Made by a program: the position numbers and the translations under genes. DNA of 64,000 nucleotides from Massariosphaeria phaeospora (Eukaryota; Ascomycota; Dothideomycetes; Pleosporales), in NCBI GenBank assembly GCA_011032825.1, contig JAADJZ010000030.1, forward strand, positions 434,001-498,000. Reading direction: 5' to 3'. The notes beneath the pieces were generated by a model, which had not been told where the DNA came from, made no database searches, and saw nothing but the letters and a program-made list of their open reading frames with translations. Below are positions 38,144-55,907 of this stretch, in pieces (positions within the stretch are counted from its first letter, which is position 1; each line of letters begins with the position of its first letter).

Positions 38144-38800
38144 ATGCCTAAGTCTTTGCCTTTTGTAGATTCGTGCTCTAAGTTAACTTGCTATTGTTAC
38201 AATTAAGTTGCTTGTATTTGTAAAACTAGTTTAAAAATGCCTGCTCTTTGCGGCCGTTGTTTTAAAAAAAACCTAAAGTGCCTAGTTAATTTCTTGTTAA
38301 ATAAGTGTGCTAAATGCCTTTAGTCTAGCGCGCTTTGTAGTCTTGCTCTAACAAAAAAAAAGTAAGCAGCTTTTTAACAAAAGCGTTGCAACTTGCAATA
38401 TTAGCTTTTGCTAGCTAAGCAACAAGTGTTATCTGCACGAATTTAAGCTGCTTAGCTAGTGTTCGCAGCAAAGTTTCGTGCTGCTACTCTTTAGGTAAAG
38501 CTTTCTATTGCTAAAATAAAAAAAGATTAGCATTTTGCTAATAAGTAGGTTGCTATTAAAAAGCTAAAGAAACTAGAAGCTGCGCAGTTCGACGCTGCTG
38601 TTAATTTTAAGAATACAGCTTCTACTAATAGTCCTATACTACTGCTACTCAAAACGCTTTCGACTAACTTAAGCTAGTTACAAACTAACTCTTCTCTACT
38701 TGTTTTTTCTTTTAACTTTTTTGCTTTTCTAGAGAACTTGAATTCTTTGCTTCTAAATTTCGCTAGTAATATGTTCGCACTAGTTCTTTGCAGTTTGTAA
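38144..38800 (+). pseudogene. RIP-damaged antisense zinc-cluster ORF of E1
   Basis: This frame runs opposite to E1 pol, between the pol end and the 3' LTR. From ATG (38,144) to TAA (38,798-38,800) is 657 nt, a multiple of three, with several in-frame stops of RIP type. Codons 36-65 read C-X2-C-X6-C-X8-C-X2-C-X6-C, the Zn2Cys6 spacing, with all six Cys still present. A Lys/Leu-rich helix-like stretch (KKLKKLEAAQF) follows. The stop codon lies antisense to the chromodomain codons for Thr-Asn-Cys, as in E2 and E3. It is the degraded counterpart of the intact ORF at 46,783-47,292. Confidence 0.7.
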
Positions 38801-41800
38801 GATTTCGTATTAGTTTCTATATATTCTAGCTCTCTAGCTATTCTTGCTATTTAACTAAGTACTTCTACTAACGTCTAAACTTTTGTAGGTCTTTAACTTC
38901 TTCAACTTTGTATTTTTCGTTTTTAAGTTCGATATTAGTTGCTACTTCGGCGTCTAGTAGTGCTAGTTTAAAAAGTAATTTGTAAAAAACTAGATGTATG
39001 CGCATGCTTATAAGTAGCTGTAGTTTAAATAATACAAGTTCTTTAACTTTTAGAATTTTAAATAGTTTTATTTAGAAATTGTTTAATTTATTGCACAGTC
39101 GTTTAGTTTTTAGGTTTTTTTGTAAGAGAAAAACTTTATTTTTCTCTTTAAAAGTTAGTTTCTTAAGCTTTTTTTTATTTGCTAACTTAGCTGTCGTAAG
39201 GTTTTTTTAAGCAATTTGTTAGCTTAGTTCGTCGTGTAATTTTTGCATTTTAAAAGCCTTGTCGTTCGCTGCTAGCAAAATGCTTTTAATATTCTTTAGA
39301 TTTTAATAAGCTACTAGCTCGTATCTATAGTTTGCGTAGTATAGCAAGTGTTTTGTAGTCGTAGACTTTGTGCTGTTGTATGCTAATTGTGCTGTTAGTA
39401 AAAGTTTAACCTAGTTGTTTTGTAGCTTGTTAGTGTACATTCGTAGATACTATTTTAGTATTTAGTTTGTTTGTTCTGTCTAGCTGTTTGTTTGCGAGTG
39501 AAAGCTTGTTAATAGCTTCTTTGCAACTTCTAACTAGGCTAGAAACGTATTCTAAAACTTTAATATAAACAGCTTGTTTCTATTAGTAATAAACTATTCT
39601 AGCAATTTGTAATTAGCAACAAGTGCTTTTGTAACTTCGTAAGCTATTTTTTCTGCCGTAATTAATTTTTCTATTAGTACAAAATGTAATTCTTTAGTTA
39701 ATTAATCTACGATTACCAATATCGAATCGCATAGCCGTGCTAATCTAGGTTTTAACAATTTTAAAAGCTTTACTATAAAGTTTATTGTAACGCTAATCTA
39801 TAAGCGTGCGAGTAGTTCTAGCAGTTAAAGTAGTTCGTAGAGCTTGTGTTTTTTAAGTTTGTTTTTAAAACAATTCAAATAGTTGCTTACTACTTTTTAA
39901 ACTGTGTTTTGTACATAAAGTATTAAGTACTCGTTTAAAATTCGTTAAACTATTTTGTTAATTTCTAAGTGTTTGTATGCTTGTAAAGTATGTAATTTCT
40001 AGATAAGCTATATAGCTTAGGTGTTGTTTGTAACTATTTATCTTTGCTAGTTGTTTTTGCTCTATTTTTAGTGCATTCTTTCTTTAATACTTGTAACTTT
40101 AGCTATTTTAGCTAATTGTAGTTAGTTGTATTTGAGAGTTCTATTTAAATTCCGTTGTAATACTAAGTTGTGCGTAACTAGTTTGTTAGTTTTTATAAAA
40201 TCTAATTTTCAACTAAGCGCGTTTGCAGCTTTGTTGTTAGTTTCTTTGCAATAGTAAATTTTAATGTCGTAATCTACTATAAATTCAGCCTATTTGACTT
40301 GTTGTTAGTTCAATTTTTTAGTTGTAGTAAAGCTAGTAAGGTTTTAATAATCTAAGTACACTTGTACTTAATGCCTTGCTTTTTTTAGCTATGCTTTTTA
40401 CTATTCAAAAGCGTTTATTATTGCTAATAGCTCTTTATTGTAAACGTTGTAGTTGAGTTTTACTCTTAAGAACTTTCTAGAATAGTAGAACACTAGTTTT
40501 TATTTTCTATTGTTGCATTGCTGTAAGAGTATTGCTTCTAATGCATAGTCTAAAGCATTAGTTTTTACTTAAGTTTTTTTTTTTAAGTTGTGCATTTGTA
40601 GCATTAGTATTGTAGTAAACTTCTTTTTAAGTTCTTAAAACGCTTGTTCTTATGTTTTTGTCTATTTGAATTTTCTATTTTTTTTAGTAACTTCTAAGAG
40701 TAGTGTCGTAGTTTTAGAGTAATTTTTAATAAACTTTTAATAGAAGTTAGCAAATTCTAAAAAGAACTACACGTTTTTTACTATTTTAGGAGTTAGCTAT
40801 TTTTGTACAGTCTAAATCTTCTTTAGGTCTATAAACACTTTTTCTTTTAAAATAATAAATCTAAAGTAGCTAGTTTTTGTAACGTGGAATTTACACTTTT
40901 TTAAGTAAAAAAGTAGCTAGTACTGCTTTATCTTTTGTAGCACTTTTTTAACATGTTTTTAATGTTTTTTGAACGTTTTCTTAGAGTATATTAATACGTT
41001 GTTTAAGTACGCTATAACAAAAATGTCTAAGTATTTGTATAGTGCTTTGTTAATTAAGGCCTAAAACATAGCTAAAGTATTAGTTAATTTAAATAGCATA
41101 ACTTAGTACTTATAGAGTTTATATCTAGTTTTAAAAGCTATTATCTATTCGTGCTTTTTTGCAATTTTAATGCAATAGTATTCGTTTTGTACGTTAAGTT
41201 TTGTAATTTATTTTACTTTTTAAAGTTAATCTATAAGCTTTTAAATAAGCGGTAGTAAGTATTTGTTTTTTTGTGTAACGTTGTTAAGATGTCAAAAATC
41301 TACGCATAGTTTTAATTTCTTGTTTTTCTTAAGTACGAATAATATTAGTAAAGCTATTAAGCTTTCGCTTAGTTGTATATATTCTCGCTAGATATTTCTT
41401 TAGACGTATTTTTTTAATTTTTTCTGCTAGTTGTAAGTTAAAGAATACATTAGTCTTAGTCGCAGTTTTGTTTCTTCTTTAAAAATAATTTTATAATTTT
41501 ATTTTTAGTAGTTTGCTAAGTTGTGCTTTTTATTTTTTTTAAAAAAACTTTTAAACTTCGCTTAGTATTCCGTAAAAAAGTTTTTAAACTTTTTTTTTAG
41601 TTTTTTAAAAAAGTTAGATTGTAGTTTGCTTACTTTTAAAAGCGCAACTTGTTGTATCTATATAACGCTTATCTGCTAAAAGTTTTTTTTACAGATTCTT
41701 GCGATTTTGTAAAGTAAAATTAAACTAATTCTTTTAATCTTAAGTAAGCTTTGAATTGTTAATTTGTTTTATTGTACTACAGCAACTTTCTTTTTAAGCT

Positions 41801-42893
41801 TTTAGCTACGTATTGTTTTGTTTTTTTAATTAATGTCAAAGTTGTGCTTTTGTAGCTAGTTGTACCTAATATACATGTTAAAACTCTTAAAGTTTATAAT
41901 ATTAATACACTGTTAGTGCTTAATGCTTGCAACTTTTAACTTAACTTTTTAAGTTTTTAGGTTAATTAAACTGTTTTTATATTCTAGTAGTTGTCCGTTA
42001 GCTAACACTATTTGTATTAGTTAATTCTTAACTTAATAAAGTATTTTGTTTTTTTTTACCTATTTTAGGAAGACTAATGTTTAGGCAGCTTTGCTATTAA
42101 GTAGTGCAGTAAGCTTTTAGCTTGCAACTTTTGCTTTTACTTTTATGTAATTTTGTTTTAGTTGCGTTTTTTGCACGCTTTGTACGGCTGTGCTAAAAGC
42201 ACTTATACTATTCTAATTATAAGTCTAGTAGCCTACTAGTTTTTTGCTAAAAAAGCTTTTAAAACTTGTTTTTTTAGAATGTTCTATTGTTTGTAGTATT
42301 TGCATTAGTTAATAAAACATTTCTATAGCTGCAAGTGTTTGCTATAGTTTTAATTTTTAAAATTTTATTTAGTTGCGTATTTTTATAGCTAATAGATTGC
42401 GCATTTTTAAGTGCAAAAAAGCTAGCGTGCTGCTTAGCACGTATTGTAGTTTTCTATGCATAATTTGTTATTGCATTTTAAATAGTTTTTGTTTTTTAAA
42501 CTTATAAGCTACTATTTTGTAATATGTTTGCTAAACTAGTGTGTTTAATACTTTTTGTTGTAACACTATGCCTATGCGCAGCTGCTGCTATAGTTTTTAA
42601 ACTAATTGTTGTAATTATGTACGTAACATTTTGTTACTATACATTCGCTATTTTCAAGCAAAACGTATAATAGTAATTTTAGCTATTGTTGCGTAAGAAT
42701 TCTATTGTTTGCGTAGTACATGTAGTTCTTTTTGTTGCACTAGTGCTAAAATAAGTTTTCGTAATTGTTCTAATTAGCAAACTTTATTTTTTTTTTGTTA
42801 GTTTTTGTTGTGCTATTGCTGCGTTTGCAGCTTTCTATTCTTGTAGTTTTTTAATTTGCAGTTTTTTAAACTTTTAGTCGTAGTACTGTGCAA
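38801..42893 (-). pseudogene. E1 gag-pol remnant, pol part
   Basis: Stop-filled minus-strand frames corresponding to zinc-knuckle end of gag, protease, RT, RNase H, integrase and chromodomain. This stretch is an inverted copy of E2 (44,660-46,252 and 52,789-55,300). It is not translatable. The gag part continues beyond E2 at 56,589-57,838. Confidence 0.8.
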
Positions 42894-43418: not shown

Positions 43419-46252
43419 TTTAGGTTTAAAACTAAAACAATATAGCAATACTTACAAGCTTACGTACAACAAGCAGCAGCGTTACTATACCTATAACAAA
43501 TCTAGCAACTATAATAGCAAAGCAAGCTAATTAAATACAGCAGCAAGCAAAATAGATTTAAAAACTATTAGCAGCAGTTACAAAGCTCTAAAGTAGAGTA
43601 AAAAAAAAGTTAGCAAAAGCACTCTCCCTAAAGAAATATAGCGAAAAAAAAAAAACTTAAAACTTTTTTTTACTAACGTTAACTTTTACTGCTGTTATTA
43701 TAGCAACAGCTTTTACATAAATTAAAACAAAATTTTAGCAGCAAAAATGCATATAAAAAACAACGCAGCAAAATAGTTTTAGCTATACGCTAAAAATTAC
43801 GTTACGCACGTAAAAAACGTAAAAAAAATAAAGCAAAACACGAAGCGCATTTTTAAAAACTAAAAGTTGTTTAAGCAAAAACTTTATATAATCTACAACA
43901 AAGTAAATAAAACACAATAAGCAATAAACTAACTTAAACTACTTAAGCAAAAAAGCTTAGCTAGCGAGTACACAATTAAATTTAAAAAGATTTAAGCTAA
44001 AGTAGATAATGTAGGAAAACGCAGCTTATGCAAGTTTTACTACGCAAAGTTAAAAAAACACGTAAAAAATAAAATTAGTTAAAACAAAAAACTAAAAAAA
44101 CTTAACGAGCTAATTAAAACTGCAGTATAAATTAACAACTAACTATAGCAACAATAGTAAAAACGCAAGTTTACTATTAAACTATACATACGCCTAGTAA
44201 CTACGATTAAAAAAACTTATTACTACAACTTAATAGATATTAACAGCGTTAAACAAATTTAGAACAACAAACTACTACAAAAGCAGTTTAACAAAAAAAA
44301 CGCTACTTTAACAAAGCAAAACTCTAAAAACAAGCTGTCTAAAAAAAAACGCTAAAAGCGTTACAATAATAAAGTATGTTTTTAATGCAGTAAAAATAAA
44401 CACTTTTGTAAAAACTACTTAGAAACACTATAAAAAGTAGCAGGCGCGCAAGCTGCTACTATTGCTATAGTTTAACTATAGCAAGTAGCTATACTATATC
44501 TAAAAATCTACAAAAAACTAGAAAACAAATAAGTTAAAGTTGAAAACTTAATAACAAAGAAATAGGCAAGCTAAAAAGCCAAGCTTACTTATCTACAAGC
44601 AAAAGCAATTACAAATTAACTTTAAAACTACGAGTACTAGATGTGCGATAAAAACACTTACATTGCATAGTACTGCAACTAAAAGTTCAAAAAACTGTAG
44701 ATTAAAAAACTACAAGAATAGAAAGCTGCAAACGCAGCAATAGCACAATAAAAACTAAAAAAAAAAAAAAAAAAGTTTGTAGATTAGAACAATTACGGAA
44801 ACCTACTTTAGCACTAGTGCAACAAAAAAAACTGCATGTACTACGCAAACAATAGAATTCTTGCGCAATAACAGCTAAAATTACTATTATACATTTTGCT
44901 TAAAGATAGTAAATGTATAGTAACAGAATGTTACGTACATAACTATAACAATTAGTTTAAAAACTATAGCAGCAGCTGCGCATAAGCGTAGTATTACAAT
45001 AAAAAGTATTAAACACACTAGTTTAGTAAGCATATTACAAAATAGTAGCTTATAAGTTTAAAAAACAAAGACTACTTAAAATGCAACAACGAATTATGCA
45101 TAGAAAACTACAATACGTGCTAAGCAGCACGCTAGCTTTTTTACACTTAAAAATGCGCGATCTATTAACTATAAAAATACGCAACTAAATAAAACTTTAA
45201 AAATTAAAACTATAGCAAACACTTATAGCTGTAAGAATGTTTTATTAACTAATGCAAATACTACAAACAATAGAACATTCTAAAAAAACAAGTTTTAAAA
45301 GCTTTTTTAGCAAAAAACTAGTAGGCTACTAAACTTATAGTTAGAATAGTATAAGTACTTTTAGCACAGCTGTACAAAGCGTGCAAAAAACGCAACTAAA
45401 ACAAAACTATATAAAAATAAAAGCAAAAGTTGCAAGCTAAAAGCTTACTGCACTACTTAATAGCAAAGCTACTTAAACATTAGTCTCTTTAAAATAAGTA
45501 AAAAAAAACAAGATACTTTATTAAGTTAAAAATAAACTAATACAAATAGTGTTAGCTAACAGATAACTACTTAAATATAAAAACAGTTTAATTAACTTAA
45601 AAACTTATAAAGTTAAATTAAAAGTTGCGAGCATTAGACATTGACAGTGTATTAATATTATAAACTTTAAAAGTTTTAACATGTATATTAAGTACAACTA
45701 GCTACAAAAACACAACTTTAATATTAATTAAAAAAACAAAACAATACATAGCTAAAAGCTTAGAAAAAAAGTCGCTGTAGTACAACAAAACAAATTAACA
45801 ATTTAAAGCTTACTTAAGAACAAAAGAATTAGTCTAATTTTACTTTACAAAATAGCAAGAATTTGTAAAAAAAACTTTTAGCAAATAAGCGTTATATAGA
45901 TACAACAAGTTGCACTTTTAAAAGTAAGCAAACTACAATTTAACTTTTTTAAAAAATAAAAAAAGAAGTTTAAAAACTTTTTTACTAAATACTAAGCAAG
46001 GTTTAAAAGTTTTTTTAAAAAAAACAAAAAGCACAACTTAGCAAACTACTAAAAATAAAATCATAAAATTATTTTAAAAAAAAAAACAAAACTGCGACTA
46101 AAACTAATGTATTTCTTAACTTATAACTAGCAAAAAAAATTAAAAAAATACATTTAAAAAAATATCTAGCGAGAATACATACGACTAAGCGAAAGCTTAA
46201 TAGCTTTACTAATATTATTCGTACTTAAGAAAAACAAAAAATTGAAACTATG
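43419..46252 (+). pseudogene. E2 gag and first part of pol (RIP-degraded)
   Basis: Plus-strand frames are riddled with TAA/TAG. A zinc knuckle is still readable near 44,625-44,690 (spacing C-X2-C-X4-H-X4-C, with the first Cys and the His changed to Tyr in RIP fashion), followed by a Lys/Ala-rich stretch. The start of RT is cut by E3 at 46,252. Confidence 0.75.
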
Positions 46253-46469
46253 TGTAAAGGCTGAGCGGACTTGGAAGAGTCTTTTATCAGGCTTAGGTTG
46301 GTTCTTAGGGATGAAGTGAGTTCGATGGACCAAGGGGGGTTGTATGGCGTTCAATACTAAGGCAGTAGCGGGCTTCGTTCTGCAAAGAGTATAGAAGTCA
46401 AAGTAAGAGTCAACTTGGGTAATTGAGATTGAAGACAACGACTGTAAGAGTGCGTTGTCTCTCGTAGTC

Positions 46470-46475
46470 TATATA
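46470..46475 (-). promoter_or_regulatory. TATA box in the 3' LTR of E3
   Basis: TATATA on the minus strand in the context AAGTATATAGACT, between the palindrome array and the predicted R start. The 5' LTR copy is at 52,570-52,575. Confidence 0.6.
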
Positions 46476-46502
46476 CTTAGAGAATGTCCTTTGCTCATTC
46501 TT

Positions 46503-46593
46503 GAGCGCTCACTATTGAGCAGTGCTCGTTGCTGAGCGCTCACCATTGAGCGCGCTCATTCTTGAGCGCTCATTAGTGAGCGGTCACGTGACC
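46503..46593. promoter_or_regulatory. Phased palindrome array in E3 U3
   Basis: Five inverted repeats of the form GAGC(N0-3)GCTC have centres near 46,506, 46,522, 46,537, 46,552 and 46,567, that is every 15-16 bp. The three identical GAGCGCTC copies are 30-31 bp apart. The 12-bp palindrome GGTCACGTGACC (46,582-46,593) follows. On the minus strand the array lies just upstream of the TATA box at 46,470-46,475. The same array is in the other LTR (about 52,603-52,693) with one G-to-A change. Confidence 0.85.
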
Positions 46594-46683
46594 GAGGTTC
46601 GGTCAGCTTGCTGTGTGACCCTATTGGTGGCTTATAACCCGGGCGCTTCGCGCTGAGCCTGGTTGTAATACTGGATCGTAACA

Positions 46684-46698
46684 TCATCCTCTCTCTCT
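46684..46698 (-). other. Polypurine tract of E3
   Basis: On the minus strand AGAGAGAGAGGATGA immediately precedes the 3' LTR (which begins TGTTACG). This is the expected primer for plus-strand DNA synthesis. Confidence 0.8.
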
Positions 46699-46782
46699 AA
46701 TGATTCGTCCTCGAATTGTGGGGGCCGCTTATTTCGTACAAGTAGCCGGAGTTACCTCGCATCTAGCTGGTAGCAACTTGCG

Positions 46783-47292
46783 ATGTCTTCGTCAACTCAT
46801 CGTCGCCTTCGTCTTAGCTCTGAAATCCGTCAAGCTAATACACTCGCCGAAATCGCTTGTAATCATTGTTTCCTGCAAGGCCTGGATTGTTTTGTTATGC
46901 TGGATTCCCGTTTGAAGTGCGCCGAGTGCACGCGTCTGGGTCGGGCGTGTGTCAACATGTCGTGGGAGTCGTTGGATCGTACTCGTGAGGAGTATAGAAA
47001 GAAAGTGGATAAAGATGAGAAATTGTTGGCAGAGGTGATAAATCGTCTGCTGCAAAATAAGAAGATTCTGAAACAGGCAGAAAAGCGGGCGCGCAAGAAG
47101 ACTCTTTGTCTTGCGTCAGAGATGGAAGCGTCGGGCGAAACCGAGCCGGCGGAGGAAATTGACTGTCCTGCGGCGTCGATTGGGATGGAGTTTTCGCCTG
47201 CGATGTGGGCTACGATGGGCCTGATCGATTCTTCCGTTGCTGGTCATGGTGTTCCTATCGATACCGTGCTAGGATCTGGTGGCAGTTCGTAA
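46783..47292 (+). CDS. Antisense zinc-cluster (Zn2Cys6-like) protein carried by E3
   Basis: Intact 169-residue ORF on the strand opposite to E3 gag-pol, starting 99 bp inside the 3' LTR and overlapping the pol end tail to tail by about 38 bp. Cys26, 29, 36, 46, 49 and 56 have spacing C-X2-C-X6-C-X9-C-X2-C-X6-C, as in Gal4-type Zn2Cys6 DNA-binding domains (CNHC, then KCAEC). Residues about 60-105 form a highly charged helix (SWESLDRTREEYRKKVDKDE, then LAEVINRLLQNKKILKQAEK), as expected of a dimerising coiled coil. The rest is acidic and short, without the large fungal middle-homology region. A TTATAA element on the plus strand (46,631-46,637) in the LTR could drive it. Function is unknown; DNA binding to the LTR is inference. 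Basic residues between the third and fourth Cys are few, so a protein-binding zinc finger is an alternative. Confidence 0.75.
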   Translation: MSSSTHRRLRLSSEIRQANTLAEIACNHCFLQGLDCFVMLDSRLKCAECTRLGRACVNMSWESLDRTREEYRKKVDKDEKLLAEVINRLLQNKKILKQAEKRARKKTLCLASEMEASGETEPAEEIDCPAASIGMEFSPAMWATMGLIDSSVAGHGVPIDTVLGSGGSS

Positions 47293-50200
47293 GGTTCGTG
47301 TCTGGTTCCCATGTGTTCTCGCTGTCTGGGTAACCTAACTACTTGACTAGGTATTCTTCCTAGTTATCTATGACTCGGTGTGCGATAATCTTTTTGACTT
47401 CGAATTCGTCTTCTTCTTCGGTTTCGTAGCGAAAGGTTCGCTGGAGTGGCGTTTGTGGGTCAGCTGGTTCCAACAAGGATATGTGGAATACTAGGTAGGT
47501 CTTTGCGTCTTTGGGCAAGTCTAATTTGTAATTGACTAGGCTTCGTTGCTCTGATATCAAAAATGGTCCGACTTTGACGTTGTCTAGACCCTTGCTTGGT
47601 CGTTTGGTGCGCAAATTCTTTGTAAGGAGATAAACTCTATCCCCCCTCTTTAGCTAAGGTGCCATTTTTCGTTTTCGGTTGACATATGAGATGCTTTGGC
47701 GTTGTGCTATCTCGAGTTTACTTCGTAGTAACTTATGTACTTCTTTGAGGTCCTCTACTGCTCTTGTAGCAGTCTTGGCTTTCGCGCCTGGAAGCGTTCT
47801 TTCAAAGAGATGTAGGTGTTTCTCGTGATTTGCGTAGTAAAGTGTCTGTCCTGTAGACTCCGACAACTTGTTGTTATACGCTAACTGTGCTATTGGTAGA
47901 AGCTCTACCCAATTGGTTTGTCGTTCGTTGCTGTATATCCTTAGATATGTCTTCATAGTTCGATTCGTTCTTTCTGTTTGCCCGTCTGTTTGTGGATAAT
48001 ATGCTGTCGATAGCTTGCGTTTCGTTTCAATTGCGGCTAACAGAGTCGTCTAGTAGTTCGATGTGAAGAGCTTGTCTCTGTTACTAATAATTGATTTGGG
48101 TATCCCATAGTATCTGATAAGTTGATCTAGGAGAATGAATCCTAGTTGTTGCGCAGTGTACGTGTTCTTGAAAGGTATCATTTCCGCGTATTTAGTAAAT
48201 CGGTCGACTATAACCATAATAGCGTTGTAGGCTATTCCTGTAGCAGGGTCCTTTGACAAAGGCAATTCTGTTACGAAATCCATAGAGATATCAGTCCAAG
48301 GCTCATCTGGTAGCTCTAGGGCCTGCATTTCTCCGTATTGTGCGTAGGTACTGTGTTTGTTTTTCTAGCAGTCTGCACATTTTTTGACGATTGCAGTGAC
48401 CTTGTCTTTCATTCCGCTAAACTCGTAGTTTCGTTTGATGAGTTCCATCGTTCTTGTGATTCCAAGGTAACCGTGAACTAGGTCATCGTGATGTTGTTGT
48501 ATAATTGCTTCTTGCAATTCTTCTGGAACTGTAATTGTAGTCTTTAAGAGTACGTTCAGCGTTCTAGCTGGTCCTAGTGATCCGTCTTGGTTGACCTTAA
48601 GTATCGCGGTGTCGATAATTTCTTTTGTTCCGGTGATATCATGTCTTCGGCTGAGAGCGTTGGCTCTGCCGTTGTCTTTTCCTAGTGTGTACACGATCTT
48701 GAACTTGTACTGGCCTAGCATTTCTGACCATCTAACCTGCCTTCGGTTGAGTACTTTGGTGGTCGTGAAATTGACTAAGTTCTTGTGATCCGTGAATATC
48801 GTGAGTTCCGAGCAGCTTTCTGCGTATACTCTCCAATGCTGTAAGCATGCAACAATAGCTAGCAGCTCTTTGTCGTGCACGTCGTATCGTTCTTCAGGTC
48901 CTAAGAACTTGCGTGAGTAGTAAGCGATAGGGTGCCATTTGCTTTCGTGCAATTGGCTGGCACATCCTCCTAGCGCGAGATCCGACGCATCGGTCTCAAA
49001 GCGTAGGAGTTGTCCTGCTTGAAATATCCGGAAGCATGGTGAACTAATGCTTGCGTTCTTGAGCTGTTGGAAAGCTTCTTCTGCTTCCTTGCTCCATGCG
49101 AAGGCTGTATCCTTTCGCGTAAGCTTTGTCAAAGGTATGGCAATTTTCAAGTAATCCTTAATGAACTGTCGATTAAAGTTCAGAAACCCTAAGAAGGATT
49201 GTATTTCCTTGACGTTCTTAGGTTGTGGCCATTCCTTGACTACCTTGATCTTGTCTTCGCTCATACGTACTCCGTCCGCTCCTACTACGTATCCGAGAAA
49301 TGCGACTTCGCGCTTGTGAAATTCGCACTTCTCTAGTTTGAGTCGGAGGTTGAATTTGTCGAGGCACCTTAGCACCGTTTTGACATGTTCAACATGGTTC
49401 TCTTGAGTTTCAGAATAGATGAGGATGTCGTCTAGATAGGCGACGACAAAGATATCTAAGTGCATTCTCAACACGTTGTTGATAAGCTCTTGAAAGGTTG
49501 CTAGGGCATTCGTGAGCCCAAATGGCATGACAGTGTATTCGTAATGTCCGTATCTCGTTCAGAACGCTGTCTTCTATTCTTCACCTTTCTTGATTCTGAT
49601 AAGGTGGTAACCATCTCGTAGGTCGAGCGCTGTGAAGACCTTTGCGTAGGATAATCAATCCCGTAATTCTGTAATATTCGGTAGAGGGTATCGATTCTTG
49701 ACCGTAATGTCGTTGAGCCTTCGAAAGTCAACGCATAGTCGTAGTACGCCGTTCTTCTTTGGTACGAAGATAATCAGGTATCCTGCAGGTAACTGTGATA
49801 GTCGTATGTAACCTTTCTTTAGGTTATCTCTAATGTAATCGCGAAGTGTGCCTAACTTTTTTTCCGATAGTCCGTATATTGGGCCGAAAGTCAGTTGCTT
49901 TCCTTCTTGTAAGACGATCTCGTGGTCCCAAAGTTTGTGTTCTGGTAATGCTTCTGCATCTACCACTTCCCGAAAGAGATGTCTAAACTCTTTGTACTCG
50001 TAGGGTATTCCTGAAAGTGCGCTGATTTCTTTCTTTACTCTAACTTGTTGATCCGAGGGCTCTGAGTTGGTATCTGTTGAGTTGGACTCTTGTGTTCTAA
50101 GGCCGTCCTTTGTCGATGCAATCACGTTGATTGTCCTCTTATCTGCTATCAAACTCTGCCGATGCGCAGGCATAGTGTTAGGAGCGCTGTTCCTGCAACA

Positions 50201-52335
50201 CTCTAGTGAAAGCGTGTTTTTCCTCTAGTCGATCTAGGGATTATGCTTTCTTAACCAAGAAAGTCCTAAAATGATGTCGTGGATAGCTAGTCCAAAGACG
50301 TTGAAGGCTAACTTCTCTTGGTGTCGTCCGATGTGCAATGGTACGTTACTTATCTCGTGCGTAACTACCGGTTGCGCCCGTATAGGCTGTCCGTCGGCAC
50401 TAGCAAGTAGATAGGGCTGTTGTTTCTTTAGTAGTTGTAGACCGGCTACAAACACTGCTCGAGCGGAAACAAAGTTATCCTGTGCTCCTGTGTCGATCAA
50501 GGCTTTCATTGGGTAACCGTTAAGCTTTACTAAGAGCTTAATCTGTTCCGCCAGGTTGATTACGTTAATCTGTCTAACTCTAGGGTTAGGCGTCGCTGGC
50601 CTAAAAAAGAATCCGTACCGAATCCGTTGGCTTTTTTGAAAGTCCAATGCTGTGCGCAGTCAGGGTGTAGGCAGGTCTGCTATTGAGCCTAAGTGCAGTT
50701 GCTATTCACAAGCATTTGCATTGCGAGTAGTTCCGCTGGGTCGTCTTTCCTAAGGAAGTGTGGTATGTCGCGTTTGTCCCATAGGTAGTGTTCGCAAGTG
50801 TCGTTCTTGCAGTCAAACCACTTCCAAGGGCAGGATTGGCCTTTCTTCTTAGGGAACCATCCCGTGCCTTGCTTGTCTGAGTAGTGGGTAAGACAGTGAT
50901 CGTGAAAGCACACTGTCCATGACATTTTCGCGTGTTCTGGATTTCGGTAGTCTAGGTAGTACTGTGGTCTGTAGGAGTTCGCGTCCTTGCGGTTACTCCT
51001 AAAGCTTCGTCGAGATTCTCTCGCTGCTTTATCGTGCCAGTGTTCCTCAGTGGCCGATTCGTTTAGATCCAAAAGTAGGATGTTTTCTTCAGGGCGTCTT
51101 GCCTTCTTGAGCTCCTGGTAGATTCCTTGTTTGTCTTCCTCTGTGAGCCATTGGTCGGGCTCGTCAAGATATCTCTACACTGCTTCGTCATAGTCGGGTA
51201 CATCGTCTCGGGGCAGGGTGTCGGATTGATAGATTCTCCGTACCCGTTCTTCCCTAATGATCTGGTCTCGATGTTCCGTGGTATTTGGTGGGTTTGGTTG
51301 CTCGTCTAGTGACTCGTATTCTTTATCTATCGAAGAGTCGGTATCGTCACAGAGCAATCTTCCTTCAGCTAAACCTGTCCCCTTAGGCGACTGTTCTCTC
51401 TGATTCTTGACATCTATAAAGGTGATTACCTCCCATTCTTCATCAATACCACTCGTGGTATTGGACAGTACGTTCAACTGTCGAACAACTTTGTTCTTCT
51501 GGTGACAGTTGCTGGAGATGTGGCCTGGTTTGCCACAATTATAGCAGGTCCTTGTTTCCTTGCTATACTTCGATCGTTCGTTGATCGGTTTGCCTTTGTT
51601 GAGGTTGTCGAGGTGCATAGGTTCGTATCCTTGAGCTAAGTTGTATACGCCTGCTGGGCGCGAGTGTTGGGTTCGCACTCGACGCTGGCTAGTGTTGAGT
51701 GTATGACTCCTGTTGCTCTTTGGTGCGTGGAACCTTGCTTCGGCTCGCGTTTCGATTGCGAGTTCGTACAACTCATTGTCGAGGCGGATCGATTCTTCGA
51801 TTAGGTCGTCCAAGGTGTCTGTGGCTGCTCCAGAGCGCATCAGTTCTGCCTTGACGTTATCTTTCAGCCCTTGCTTGTACATGCGCATGAGTGCTTTGTC
51901 GTTCCAGTCAGTCTGGATGGAGTACTGTTGAAACAGGTTGGCGTAGTCTCTGGCCGACTTGGTCTGGCGCATTCGTTGGATAGTTCTTTCTGCGATAGCG
52001 GGTTCGTTGGCGATCGCATAGGATTGTCGCAGCTTGTCTTTGAACACAGCGCGATCTTCGAACATGCGTGTAATCATGTCTTCGTCGTTGTCGCTATCCA
52101 GGTACTTCTTCAAGTAGGGTTGGACCCACTTGAGGGCTGTCCCTCTCATGTAGGAAGCCATCAGAGATGCCTTGTCGACGTCGTCGACATGGTCATCTTC
52201 AAACTTGAAGAAGAGGTCGAACTGGAGTAACCAGTCCTCTAGCTTCAAGCGATCCCCATAGTAGAGGTCGGGCTTCGCTACCTTCGTACCGCCGGTGCGG
52301 GTATGAGGAGAGGTGGTCATCGAGGTATCACTCAT
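47255..52335 (-). pseudogene. E3 gag-pol, interrupted by RIP-type stops
   Basis: Minus-strand polyprotein from ATG 52,335 to TAG 47,255-47,257. In order: gag with CYNCGKPGHISSNC knuckle (about 51,507-51,549); a second Cys/His-rich patch (about 50,800-50,930); protease (ALIDTGAQDN, about 50,480); RT with YLDD (about 49,430-49,445); RNase H (FETDASDLALGG); integrase HHCC zinc finger (about 48,365-48,500) and core; GPY/F-like region; chromodomain (EEYLVK, LGYPDSENTWEP). Nonsense codons lie at 51,175, 50,689, 50,234, 49,655, about 49,563-49,577, 48,365, 48,050, 47,654, 47,360 and 47,339. Many fit CAG or TGG to TAG (CpA to TpA on one strand). The integrase Asp expected before Arg-Asp-Lys-Leu-Phe is Asn (codon 48,080-48,082), also RIP-type. 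The element should be unable to move by itself. Confidence 0.92.
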
Positions 52336-52342
52336 CTTGGAG

Positions 52343-52351
52343 GTCTTCAAT
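52343..52351 (-). other. Putative self-priming site of E3
   Basis: On the minus strand ATTGAAGAC starts one base after the 5' LTR. Its exact reverse complement GTCTTCAAT lies at 52,536-52,528 in the LTR, about 35 nt downstream of the TATATA box, where the transcript should begin. This matches Tf1-like self-priming; I see no tRNA-type primer site. Confidence 0.55.
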
Positions 52352-52352
52352 A

Positions 52353-52783
52353 TGTAAAGGCTGAGCGGACTTGGAAGAGTCTTTTATCAGGCTTAGGTTG
52401 GTTCTTAGGGATGAAGTGAGTTCGATGGACCAAGGGGGGTTGTATGGCGTTCAATACTAAGGCAGTAGCGAGCTTCGTTCTGCAAAGAGTATAAAAGTCA
52501 AAGTAAGAGTCAACTTGGGTAATTGAGATTGAAGACAACGACTGTAAGAGTGCGTTGTCTCTCGTAGTCTATATACTTAGAGAATGTCCTTTGCTCATTC
52601 TTGAGCGCTCACTATTGAGCAGTGCTCGTTGCTAAGCGCTCACCATTGAGCGCGCTCATTCTTGAGCGCTCATTAGTGAGCGGTCACGTGACCGAGGTTC
52701 AGTCAGCTTGCTGTGTGACCCTATTGGTGGCTTATAACCCGAGCGCTTCGCGCTGGGCCTAGTTGTAATACTGGATCGTAACA
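52353..52783 (-). repeat. 5' LTR of E3
   Basis: 431 bp, TGTTACG to CTTTACA on the minus strand. It carries the TATA box (52,570-52,575), the palindrome array (about 52,603-52,693) and the GGTCACGTGACC palindrome. Confidence 0.95.
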
Positions 52784-52788
52784 CTATG

Positions 52789-55340
52789 CGTAGATTTTTA
52801 ACATCTTAACAACGTTACACAAAAAAACAAATACTTACTACCGCTTATTTAAAAGCTTATAAATTAACTTTAAAAAGTAAAATAAATTACGAAACTTAAT
52901 GTACGAGACAGATACTATTGCATTTAAATTGCAAAAAAGCACAAATAAATAACAGCTTTTAAAACTAAATATAAATTCTATAAGTACTAAGTTATGCTAT
53001 TTAAATTAACTAATGCTCTAGCGACGTTTTAAGCTTTAATTAACAAAGCATTATACAAATACTTAGACATTTTTGTTACAGCATACTTAGACAACGTATT
53101 AATATACTCTAAAAAAACGTTTAAGAAACATTAAAAACATGTTAAAAAAGTGCTAAAAAAAATAAAGCAGTACTAGCTACTATTTTACTTAAAAAAGTGT
53201 AAATTCTACGTTACAAAAACTAGCTATTTAGAATTTATTATTTTAAGAGAAAGTGTATTAATAGACCCGAAGAAAATCTAAACTGTACAGAAATAGCTAA
53301 CTTCTAAAATAGTAAAAAACGTGCAGTTTTTTCTAAAATTTGCTAACTTTTATTAAAAGTTTATTAAAAATTATTCTAAAACTACGACTCTACTCTTAAA
53401 AGTTACTAAAAAAAAAAAAAAGTTTAAATAAACAAAAACACAAGAACAAGCGTTTTAAGAACTTAAAAAGAAGTTTACTACAGCACCAATGCTACAGATG
53501 CACAACCTAAAAAAAAAAACTTAAGTAAAAACTAATACTTTAGACTACGCATTAAAAGCAATACTTTTACAGCAATGCAACGACAGGAAATAAAAACTAG
53601 TGTTTTACTATTTTAGAAAGTTCTTAAGAGTAAAACTTAACTACAACGTTTACAACAAGAAGCTATTAGCAATAATAAACGCTTTTAAACAATAAAAAGC
53701 GTAGCTAAAAAGAGCAAGACACTAAGTATAAGTGTACTTAGATTACTAAAACTTTACTAGCTTTACTACAACTAAGAAATTAAATAGACAACAAGTTAAA
53801 TAGGCCGAATTTATAGCAAACTACGACATCAAGATTTACTATTAAAAAAAAACTAACAATAAAGCCGCAAACGCGCTTACTCGAAGATTAGATTTTATAA
53901 AAACTAACAAACTTGTTACGCATAACTTAATATTACAACGAAACTTAAATAGAACTCTTAAATATAACTAACTACGACTAGCTAAGATAGCTAAAGTTAC
54001 TAGCATTAAAAAAAAAATGCATTAAAAATAAAGCAAAAACGACTAGCAAAGATAAATAGTTACAAATAACACTTAAGCTATATAGCTTATTTAGAAATTA
54101 CATACTTTACAAGCATATAGACACTTAGAAATTAACAAAATAGTTTAACAAATTTTAAACGAGTACTTAATACTCTATGTACAAAACATAGTTTAGAAAG
54201 TAGTAAGCAACTATTTAGATTGTTTAAAGAATAAACTTAAAAAACACAAGCTTTATAAACTACTTTAACTACTAGAACTACTCGCACGCTTATAGATTAG
54301 CGTTACAATAAATTTCATAGTAAAGCTTTTAAAATTGTTAAAACTCGAATTAGCACGGCTATGCAACTCGATCTTAGTAATCGTAGATTAATTAACTAAA
54401 GAATTACATTTTGTACTAACAGAAGAATTAATTATAGTAAAAGAAATAGCTTACGAGGTTACAAAAGCACTTGTTGCTAATTACAAATTGCTAAAATAGT
54501 TTATTACTAATAGAAACAAGCTGTTTACATTAAAGTTTTAGAATACGTTTCTAGCCTAGTTAGAAGTTGCAAAAAAGCTATTAACAAGCTTTTACTCGCA
54601 AACAAATAGCTAAATAGAATAAACAAACTAAACGCTAGAACAGTACCTACGAATGTACACTAATAAGCTGCAAAACAACTAAGTTAAACTTTTGCTAACA
54701 GCACAATTGGCATACAACAGCACGAGGTTTACGACAATAAAACACTCGCTATACTACGCAAACTATAGATATAAGCTAGTAGCTTATTAAAATCTAAAGA
54801 ATATTAAAAGCATTTCGCTAGCAGCAAACAACAAGGCTTTTAGAATACAAAAATTACATAACGAATTAAGCAAACAAATTGCTTAAAAGAACTTTACAAC
54901 AGCTAAGTTAGCAAACAAAAAAAAGCTTAAAAAACCAACTTTTAAAGAGAGAAATAGAGTTTTTCTCTTACGAAAAAATCTAAAAACTAAACGGCTATGC
55001 AACAAACTAGACAACTTTCAAATAAAACTATTTAAAATTCTAAAAGTTAAGAAACTTGTATTATTTAAACTATAGCTACTTACAAGCATGCGCATACATC
55101 TAGTTTTTTACAAATTACTTTTTAAACTAGCACTACTAAACGCCGAAGTAGCAACTAATATCAAGCTTAAAGACAAAAAGTACGAAGTCGAAAAAGTTAA
55201 AGACCTACAAAAGTTCAAACGTTAGCGAAAATACTTAGTCAAATAGCAAGAATAGCTAGAAAGCTAGAATACATAGAAACTAATACGAAATTTTACGAAC
55301 TGCAAGGAACTAGTGCGAACATATTACTAGCAAAATCTAG
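52789..55340 (+). pseudogene. E2 pol, second part: RT to chromodomain (RIP-degraded)
   Basis: Continuation of E2 after the E3 insertion. Readable pieces include YLDIFVTAYLDNVLIYSKK (RT active site, with one Asp now Asn) near 53,060-53,115 and, near 55,190-55,330, a chromodomain (EVEKVKDLQKFKR, RKYLVK, NFTNCKELVRTYY). Stops occur throughout. Confidence 0.8.
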
Positions 55341-55907
55341 AAGCAAAGAATTCAAGTTCTCTAAGAAAGTAAAAGAATTAAAAGAAAAAAAAGCGAGTAG
55401 AGAAAAGTTAGTTTGTAACTAGCCTAAGTTAGTCGAAGAAGTTTCGAGTAGCAGTAGTGTAGAACTATTGGTAGAAACTATACTCTTAGAACTCGCAGAA
55501 GCTCTAGAAAGCGCGACCTCGCGGTTAGCTCGTTTTAACTCTTCAATCGCAATCTACTTTTAAGATAAACGAACGTGCTTTTTTATTTTTATAGCAAAAA
55601 GCTTAGCACGAAGTGCAGCAGCTTGGCTTTTTACTACAAAAAGCCGATAGCGTAGGTTGCGTCGCTTTTGCTAAAGCGTAGCTTACTTTTTAAAAAATAG
55701 CGCAAGCTTATAAAAAGCACTAGAGCTTAAACACTTAGCACACTTTTTAGACAATGCCTTTACGAGGCACTAAAAACTTTTTTTTAAGCAACAACTACAA
55801 AGATCTAGCATTTTACAACTACGTTTGCGGATTTAAGCAATTTGTTTGTAACAACAACAAGTTAATTTGCTTACTAAAGCAATAGAAGAAAAGAAAGCCT
55901 TAGGCAT
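55293..55907 (-). pseudogene. RIP-damaged antisense zinc-cluster ORF of E2
   Basis: From ATG (55,907) to TAA (55,295-55,293) is 615 nt, a multiple of three, on the strand opposite to E2 pol. Codons 37-66 keep C-X2-C-X6-C-X8-C-X2-C, with the sixth Cys changed to Tyr (TGT to TAT, RIP-type). The start (Met-Pro-Lys) matches E1. The stop is antisense to the chromodomain Phe-Thr-Asn-Cys codons, the same place as in E3. Confidence 0.7.

What the first reader, a model, noticed from the sequence alone, without database searches (positions are those of the whole stretch)
46783..47292. Intact antisense Zn2Cys6-like ORF inside a chromovirus
E3 gag-pol is on the minus strand, yet the plus strand between the pol end and the 3' LTR holds an unbroken 169-codon ORF. 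Its Cys spacing (C-X2-C-X6-C-X9-C-X2-C-X6-C) fits the fungal zinc-cluster signature exactly, and a charged helix follows where Gal4-type proteins dimerise. Ty3/Gypsy elements are not generally described as carrying an antisense transcription-factor-like gene. It stays open while gag-pol has about a dozen stops, although with a 510-bp target that alone could be luck. Inference: an element-encoded regulator of the element or of host silencing.
Basis: partly seen in the sequence, partly recalled or inferred. Interest (0 to 1): 0.88.

Follow-up and report, generated by a model that had tools for sequence, protein, structure and literature searches.

The report
Antisense zinc-cluster gene in fungal retrotransposon
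A family of virus-like jumping elements in a fungal genome carries, on the opposite strand from its own genes, a small conserved gene for a protein with a six-cysteine zinc-cluster-like head and a long helix; it looks like an accessory gene of the element, similar in kind to one already reported in Botrytis, rather than a chance reading frame.

Summary
The ORF is real: window 46783-47292 (+), 169 codons, 99 bp inside the 3' LTR of a minus-strand chromovirus whose chromodomain overlaps the ORF's last 35 bp tail to tail. Cysteine spacing is C-X2-C-X6-C-X9-C-X2-C-X6-C, as stated. It is not chance: three searches gave 128, 253 and 283 related proteins (those named are fungal), and 156 of the 200 retrieved keep all six Cys. 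The genome has 38 DNA matches; 5 copies have no stop, and the 30 copies read all lie in elements. Other chromoviruses of the genome carry, at the same antisense place, a remotely related gene (family B) with the same layout. Openness of this one copy is weak evidence: only 8 of 259 C>T/G>A changes would make a stop, and this copy has lost a nearly invariant Arg. Gal4-type identity is only partly supported: Pfam cut-off not reached, weak structure matches, and no basic first loop. An antisense gene between pol and the 3' LTR is known in Botrytis (brtn) and plants (gene23, TRP28 ORFs). Best reading: an element-encoded antisense accessory protein, probably nuclear and dimeric; its regulatory role is inferred.

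The parts
46783..47292 (+). antisense accessory ORF, 169 aa: N-terminal helix (3-18), six-Cys cluster (26-56), long helix (61-116), C-terminal DCPA..SP..W motif and helix (139-155)
46858..46950 (+). six-Cys cluster C-X2-C-X6-C-X9-C-X2-C-X6-C (residues 26-56)
46253..46683 (-). 3' LTR of E3 (TG...CA), upstream of the antisense ORF; a TATAA lies on the + strand at 46633, 150 bp before the ATG
   Evidence: boundary by eye
46684..46698 (-). polypurine tract next to the 3' LTR (sense strand AGAGAGAGAGGATGA, then TGTTACGATC)
   Evidence: by eye
46700..46915 (+). upstream ATG opening a 71-aa frame that overlaps the ORF in another frame; possible uORF if the mRNA starts upstream of it
47258..47404 (-). 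chromodomain at the end of pol (2 TAG inside in this copy), overlapping the last 35 bp of the antisense ORF
47258..52350 (-). gag-pol of E3, broken: 11 stops in the two frames followed, plus a change of frame
52353..52783 (-). 5' LTR of E3; target duplication CTATG outside both LTRs
   Evidence: boundary by eye

Best explanation
The ORF is an accessory gene of a chromodomain Ty3/gypsy element, encoded antisense to gag-pol and overlapping the end of pol tail to tail. SHOWN: its position, its presence in the element copies, conservation of six Cys and flanking residues in many related proteins, and a second remotely related gene at the same place in other chromoviruses of the same genome. INFERRED: it is transcribed from an antisense promoter in or beside the 3' LTR; the cysteines bind two zinc ions; the long helix makes it a dimer; the protein acts in the nucleus on the element's own copies (LTR transcription, silencing or integration), like antisense accessory proteins of other retroelements. 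Which of these steps it acts on is not settled. The window copy itself is probably decaying.
For:: 38 DNA and 42 protein places in the genome (a few places belong to one copy); 5 without stops at 97-100% identity, the others with 1 to 8 stops, mostly TAA/TAG; of 30 copies aligned, 21 have no gap over 507 nt and 8 lack 12 or 3 nt near the end; one of the five stop-free copies (L013) lacks the ORF's end; no insertions. The LTR aligns beside 29 of 30 and pol beside the thirtieth; 128, 253 and 283 relatives at E<=1e-3; 156 of 200 retrieved proteins have the six-Cys pattern, with 6-residue loops in all 156; of the 43 without it among the first 120, 40 are ORF calls that start inside or after the cluster and 3 have lost a Cys; 52 members chosen for the pattern, 30-78% identical to the query; beyond the Cys, E14, W61, L64, D65, R68, K106, L110, P129 are invariant. 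AlphaFold2 pLDDT 82; family B; hhalign of one family-B protein to the family-A profile, probability 92.7, E 4e-7 for that single comparison; of 52 chromodomain hits, 13 have family A and 13 family B antisense just downstream. (25 of 30 copies): transversion changes per kb 17 over codons 1-157 of the ORF, 63 in pol, 200 in the LTR.
Against: No transcript, protein, zinc or DNA-binding evidence. Pfam Zn_clus stays below its cut-off where scores were printed (17.4, 14.4 and 11.6 bits against 21); the window protein has no Zn_clus hit; an unrelated family (Bunya_G1, 18 of 52 members, best E 0.00038) scored a better E than Zn_clus (0.002). Foldseek E >= 1.5. The first loop has no Lys/Arg in 113 of 156. 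The in-genome selection signal is modest: codons 158-169 were left out, and they hold 5 variable transversion columns in 36 nt, 3 of them shared by several copies; the 8 columns in codons 1-157 are all one-copy changes; pol as a positive control shows no third-position excess by columns (20 of 57), though it does by parsimony changes (42 of 91). The window copy carries E77K, R91Q, E101K and, shared with L011, P40L, R91 being nearly invariant in the family.
Confidence: 0.62

Rival explanations
1. Chance open frame: a spurious antisense ORF that stayed open by luck while gag-pol decayed.
For: Few stop-making changes are available (8 of 259 C>T/G>A), so openness of the 5 young copies is cheap.
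Against: Hundreds of related proteins keep length, six Cys and the W..LD..R motif; 0 of 200 shuffled windows hold the pattern.
Confidence: 0.03
2. Host transcription-factor gene captured by the element.
For: Zinc clusters are typical of fungal host factors (general knowledge).
Against: In this genome, searches with two relatives returned only places already known as family-A matches (37 of 37 and 37 of 37); the 30 copies read lie in elements, the remaining places were not read. Most relatives lack the classical basic loop. An ancient capture is not excluded.
Confidence: 0.07
3. The antisense RNA, not the protein, is what matters (dsRNA or lncRNA regulation of the element).
For: Antisense lncRNAs arise from TEs in Blumeria (PMC10648671, passages); the review PMC7264820 names this option.
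Against: Amino-acid conservation at 30-78% identity with invariant Cys needs a coding explanation.
Confidence: 0.1
4. A non-regulatory cofactor: a zinc protein that binds element RNA, Gag or integrase, or carries the preintegration complex to chromatin beside the chromodomain.
For: First loop mostly without basic residues argues against plain Gal4-type DNA reading; small protein with a long helix for partner binding; gene beside a chromodomain integrase.
Against: No interaction evidence; pol has its own chromodomain.
Confidence: 0.18

Closest known systems
brtn of Boty-like retrotransposons, Botrytis cinerea (Zhao et al. 2011, Virology 417:248; paper not held, seen only as cited)
   Same: Additional gene antisense to gag-pol, listed by a review among antisense ORFs between pol and 3' LTR (PMC7264820), in a gypsy element whose pol ends in a CHROMO domain (passages of PMC4227169; also PMC8365987). 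A BRTN-like sequence is reported in Monilinia (passage of PMC5987419).
   Different: No BRTN sequence could be reached, so homology is untested; none of the passages read calls brtn a zinc-cluster protein.
TRP28-domain antisense ORFs of Retand elements (plants)
   Different: Plant, non-chromovirus lineage; another domain, 'zinc' does not occur in that text.
gene23 of maize Grande
   Same: Antisense accessory gene, nuclear protein, own promoter (as told in PMC7264820).
   Different: No clear similarity to other proteins stated there; plant element.
HBZ of HTLV-1
   Same: Antisense gene of a retrovirus coding a nuclear protein (passage of PMC11963269); antisense promoter in the 3' LTR (PMC7264820).
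   Different: bZIP protein (recalled), unrelated fold and host; analogy only.
Gal4-type Zn2Cys6 DNA-binding domain (PF00172)
   Same: Cys spacing; all 6 Foldseek rows were zinc-cluster domains; PPR1 1.5 A over 35 residues, Gal4 1.6 A over 34.

Membership tests
Zn2Cys6 (PF00172) zinc cluster | C-X2-C-X6-C-X5-12-C-X2-C-X6-8-C spacing (signature recalled) | tested here: met
   Window 2-6-9-2-6; 156 of 200 proteins, loops 6 and 6 in all 156, middle spacing 7-14 (13 or 14 in 3 of them)
Zn2Cys6 (PF00172) zinc cluster | Score above the Pfam curated cut-off (21 bits) | tested here: not met
   No hit for the window protein; 28 of 52 members hit weakly, best E 0.002, bits not printed; P0110 17.4, P0201 14.4, P0128 11.6 bits
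Zn2Cys6 (PF00172) zinc cluster | Binuclear-cluster fold | tested here: inconclusive
Zn2Cys6 (PF00172) zinc cluster | Basic residues between Cys 2 and Cys 3 that contact DNA (recalled from Gal4) | tested here: not met
   0 Lys/Arg in 113, 1 in 38, 2 in 5 of 156; window 0; the two family-B clusters have 2 each
Zn2Cys6 (PF00172) zinc cluster | Binds two zinc ions and DNA | not testable with these tools
   needs protein
Zn2Cys6 (PF00172) zinc cluster | Dimerising coiled coil after the cluster | tested here: inconclusive
   Helix 61-116 in a monomer model; dimer not modelled
Chromovirus (Ty3/gypsy) as carrier | LTRs, target duplication, pol ending in a chromodomain | tested here: met
   RT and integrase were not scanned with Pfam
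Antisense accessory ORF of LTR elements (aORF-3R class) | Conserved ORF antisense to gag-pol at the pol/3' LTR end, in most copies of the family | tested here: met
   copies lacking the ORF were not sought separately
BRTN family proper | Sequence homology to BRTN of Boty | not testable with these tools
   Zhao 2011 not held; no row named BRTN among the 120 rows listed in each, but most rows carry no name

The most novel reading that the evidence does not exclude
Fungal chromoviruses as a group carry an ancient antisense gene for a variant zinc-cluster protein, with at least two remotely related families of it in one genome and the DNA-contact loop neutralised in family A: a dedicated retroelement regulator or counter-silencing factor, the fungal counterpart of HBZ or the TRP28 ORFs.
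Probability: 0.3. Interest if true: 0.75.

Novelty: new variant of a known kind. Interest (0 to 1): 0.52.

Why it matters
If elements of several fungal chromovirus families keep an antisense zinc-cluster gene, annotators should stop filing these as host hypothetical or Zn(2)-C6 genes, and an open question, what antisense accessory genes of LTR elements do, becomes testable with a small protein. It would also be a fungal case of the same arrangement (antisense nuclear protein beside the 3' LTR) that is reported in plants and retroviruses.

Tried and rejected
So whether relatives elsewhere lie antisense between pol and an LTR is untested, and no cross-species dN/dS was made.

PDB by sequence: nothing credible with the protein or the profile. 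Structure library of viral proteins: 7 rows, best E 2.7. The two VIA-align rows above the zinc clusters match the long helix only.

A first copy alignment left minus-strand loci unreversed and was discarded; one search replaces it. Third-position bias as proof of selection was weakened: 6 of 8 ORF columns over codons 1-157 (7 of 13 over the whole ORF), but pol gave 20 of 57.

Literature searches for a zinc-cluster antisense gene in fungal LTR elements: in an open-access library; none of the rows listed or passages read describes one, but Zhao 2011 itself was not readable. PMC3248453 (LTR Retrotransposons in Fungi) has no 'antisense' in its main text, nor has PMC10799480; both seen as passages.

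Of 26 chromodomain hits without family A or B beside them, two were read: L070 is an ABC-type host gene by my reading, L071 shows no recognisable element gene. The other 24 were not read. The family-B list given to one search was 28 of the 150 rows, picked near chromodomains, and the family-A list 37 of the 42 rows, so both counts are lower bounds. Of six family-B places read (L063-L068), two show the full six-Cys pattern (L063, L064), two have a stop inside the cluster (L065, L068) and two have lost Cys (L066, L067).

Full report
OBSERVATION. The ORF at 46783-47292 on the plus strand exists and encodes 169 aa. The spacing of its six Cys is 2-6-9-2-6. The window holds this pattern once in six frames, and none of 200 trinucleotide-shuffled windows has it. 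The element has 434-bp repeats at 46250-46683 and 52350-52783 with 98.2% identity; by eye the TG..CA LTRs begin three bases further in, flanked by CTATG on both sides. Two sister copies have their own, different duplications (CTTAT in L040, GTTCC in L041; flanks), so these are separate insertions; for L043 the flanks did not match exactly, and L042 lacks a full matching 5' LTR. The chromodomain of pol lies at 47258-47404 on the minus strand, so pol and the ORF meet tail to tail with about 35 bp of overlap. Gag-pol is broken: 11 stops in the two frames followed plus a change of frame.

IS AN OPEN FRAME SURPRISING HERE? Not by itself. Of the differences carried by one of the five young copies alone, 493 of 571 are C>T or G>A (my sum of the table), the type made by repeat-induced point mutation (RIP); L042 contributes most. 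Only 8 of 259 such changes in the ORF would make a stop, half the rate of the pol stretch counted (67 of 1012). With the few changes seen, an intact frame is expected. This copy also differs from its sisters by E77K, R91Q and E101K, and shares P40L with L011; R91 is nearly invariant in the family. So this copy is decaying, not specially preserved.

COPIES IN THE GENOME. DNA search finds 38 places, protein search 42, a few of them parts of one copy. Five have no stop and 97-100% identity; the others have 1 to 8 stops, mostly TAA and TAG. In an alignment of 30 copies, 21 match all 507 positions without a gap, 7 lack 12 nt at codons 156-158, one lacks 3 nt, and one lacks the end; none has an insertion. 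The LTR aligns beside 29 of the 30, and pol beside the thirtieth. Transversions, which RIP does not make, were counted on a tree of 25 of the 30 copies (five dropped because inserts or misalignment spoiled a region): 8 in codons 1-157 (471 bp), 88 in 1390 bp of pol, 87 in 434 bp of LTR, 6 in 99 bp between. In codons 1-157 no transversion is shared by two copies, against 12 columns in pol and 18 in the LTR. The last 12 codons, left out of that count, are different: 5 variable columns in 36 nt, 3 of them shared, so the extreme C-terminus is not constrained. The rest fits constraint at least as strong as on pol. It is modest evidence: numbers are small, many changes come from dead copies, and pol, used as a control, shows no third-position excess by columns (20 of 57) although it does by parsimony changes (42 of 91). 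Codons 1-157 had 6 of 8.

RELATIVES. Three searches of 5.8 billion proteins gave 128, 253 and 283 relatives, 120 listed each time (the last scored only the 7998 candidates sharing most words). Most come from metagenomes without a name. Named sources are Sporormia, Macroventuria, Cercospora, Periconia, Hortaea, Xanthoria and Elsinoe, which are ascomycete fungi (recalled); one is labelled Zn(2)-C6 fungal-type in UniRef. Of 200 proteins retrieved, 156 keep the six-Cys pattern, always with 6-residue loops. Of the 43 without it among the first 120, 40 begin inside or after the cluster and 3 have lost a Cys (P0025, P0070, P0109). In 52 members that I chose for having the pattern, invariant positions outside the Cys are E14, W61, L64, D65, R68, K106, L110 and P129. 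Conservation of this depth down to 30% identity is the main argument for a working protein. The database holds predicted ORFs only, so broken copies are under-represented.

A SECOND ANTISENSE FAMILY. Reading beside another chromodomain of the same genome (L063) showed an antisense ORF of 231 codons, with an inner ATG giving 190 aa, C-X2-C-X6-C-X7-C-X2-C-X6-C and a long charged stretch. It gives 150 match rows, several per copy and many to the tail only. A divergent relative beside another chromodomain (L064, 35% identical) has spacing 2-6-8-2-6 and one stop before its helix. Four further places read are broken: a stop inside the cluster in L065 and L068, lost Cys in L066 and L067. The window protein and two relatives did not find this family by ordinary search, but a profile comparison aligns N-helix and cluster with probability 92.7; against the distant-branch profile it is only 48.8. 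The last third of the ORF lies antisense to the pol tail, so its conservation may come from pol. Of 52 chromodomain hits, 13 have family A and 13 family B antisense just downstream, both lower bounds; of the other 26, two were read and are not elements, the rest were not read.

MECHANISM. Most likely this is an accessory protein of the element made from an antisense transcript that starts in or beside the 3' LTR: a TATAA lies 150 bp upstream of the ATG inside the LTR, with an upstream ATG at 46700 in another frame. That start is inference. Zinc binding and dimer formation are inferred from cysteines and helix. A nuclear role on the element's own DNA is argued by analogy with Grande gene23 and the antisense ORFs of Retand (PMC7264820, parts 1 and 2 of 3 read; PMC11963269, abstract and passages). 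The missing basic loop in family A keeps open a cofactor role on RNA, Gag or integrase instead.

WHAT IS KNOWN. The arrangement is not new: Boty-like elements of Botrytis carry the additional antisense gene brtn and end pol with a chromodomain (passages of PMC4227169; PMC8365987), and a BRTN-like sequence is reported in Monilinia (passage of PMC5987419). The original paper (Zhao 2011) is not held and no row named BRTN appeared, though most rows have no name, so whether this gene is a BRTN relative is undecided; I think it likely. In the rows listed by my eight literature searches and the passages read I saw no description of a zinc-cluster protein in this place.

VERDICT. A real, conserved, element-encoded antisense gene; a new variant of a known kind, with the zinc-cluster-like domain, its two gene families in one genome and its odd loop as the new points. 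The function is untested.

Noticed in passing
L063:1103-1798 and L064:426-1115 (other chromoviruses of the same genome): A second family of antisense six-Cys plus long-helix ORFs beside chromodomains; 150 match rows in the genome, many to the tail only.
   Followed up: partly
window 38577-38750 (+) and 55343-55549 (-): Weak matches to the tail of the family-B antisense ORF, suggesting further chromovirus relics in the window; this tail is antisense to pol, so the match may reflect pol.
   Followed up: no
L042 (C49:1754270-1761469): One young copy is nearly clean over the antisense ORF and the 3' part of pol but carries about 200 C>T and 200 G>A one-copy changes, nearly all on the gag-side half, with no full matching 5' LTR: a chimera of a clean and a RIP-mutated copy, or regional RIP.
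   Followed up: no
window 46700-46915: A 71-aa frame from an upstream ATG overlaps the start of the antisense ORF in another frame; possible uORF.
   Followed up: no
window 41301-42806 / 44751-46256 and 40000-41314 / 52779-54093: Long inverted repeats, 92% and 90% complementary, around E3: further repeats next to it.
   Followed up: no
P0115, P0147, P0150 and similar 222-aa forms: Many distant-branch predicted proteins have N- and C-terminal extensions that look like read-through of neighbouring element sequence.
   Followed up: partly
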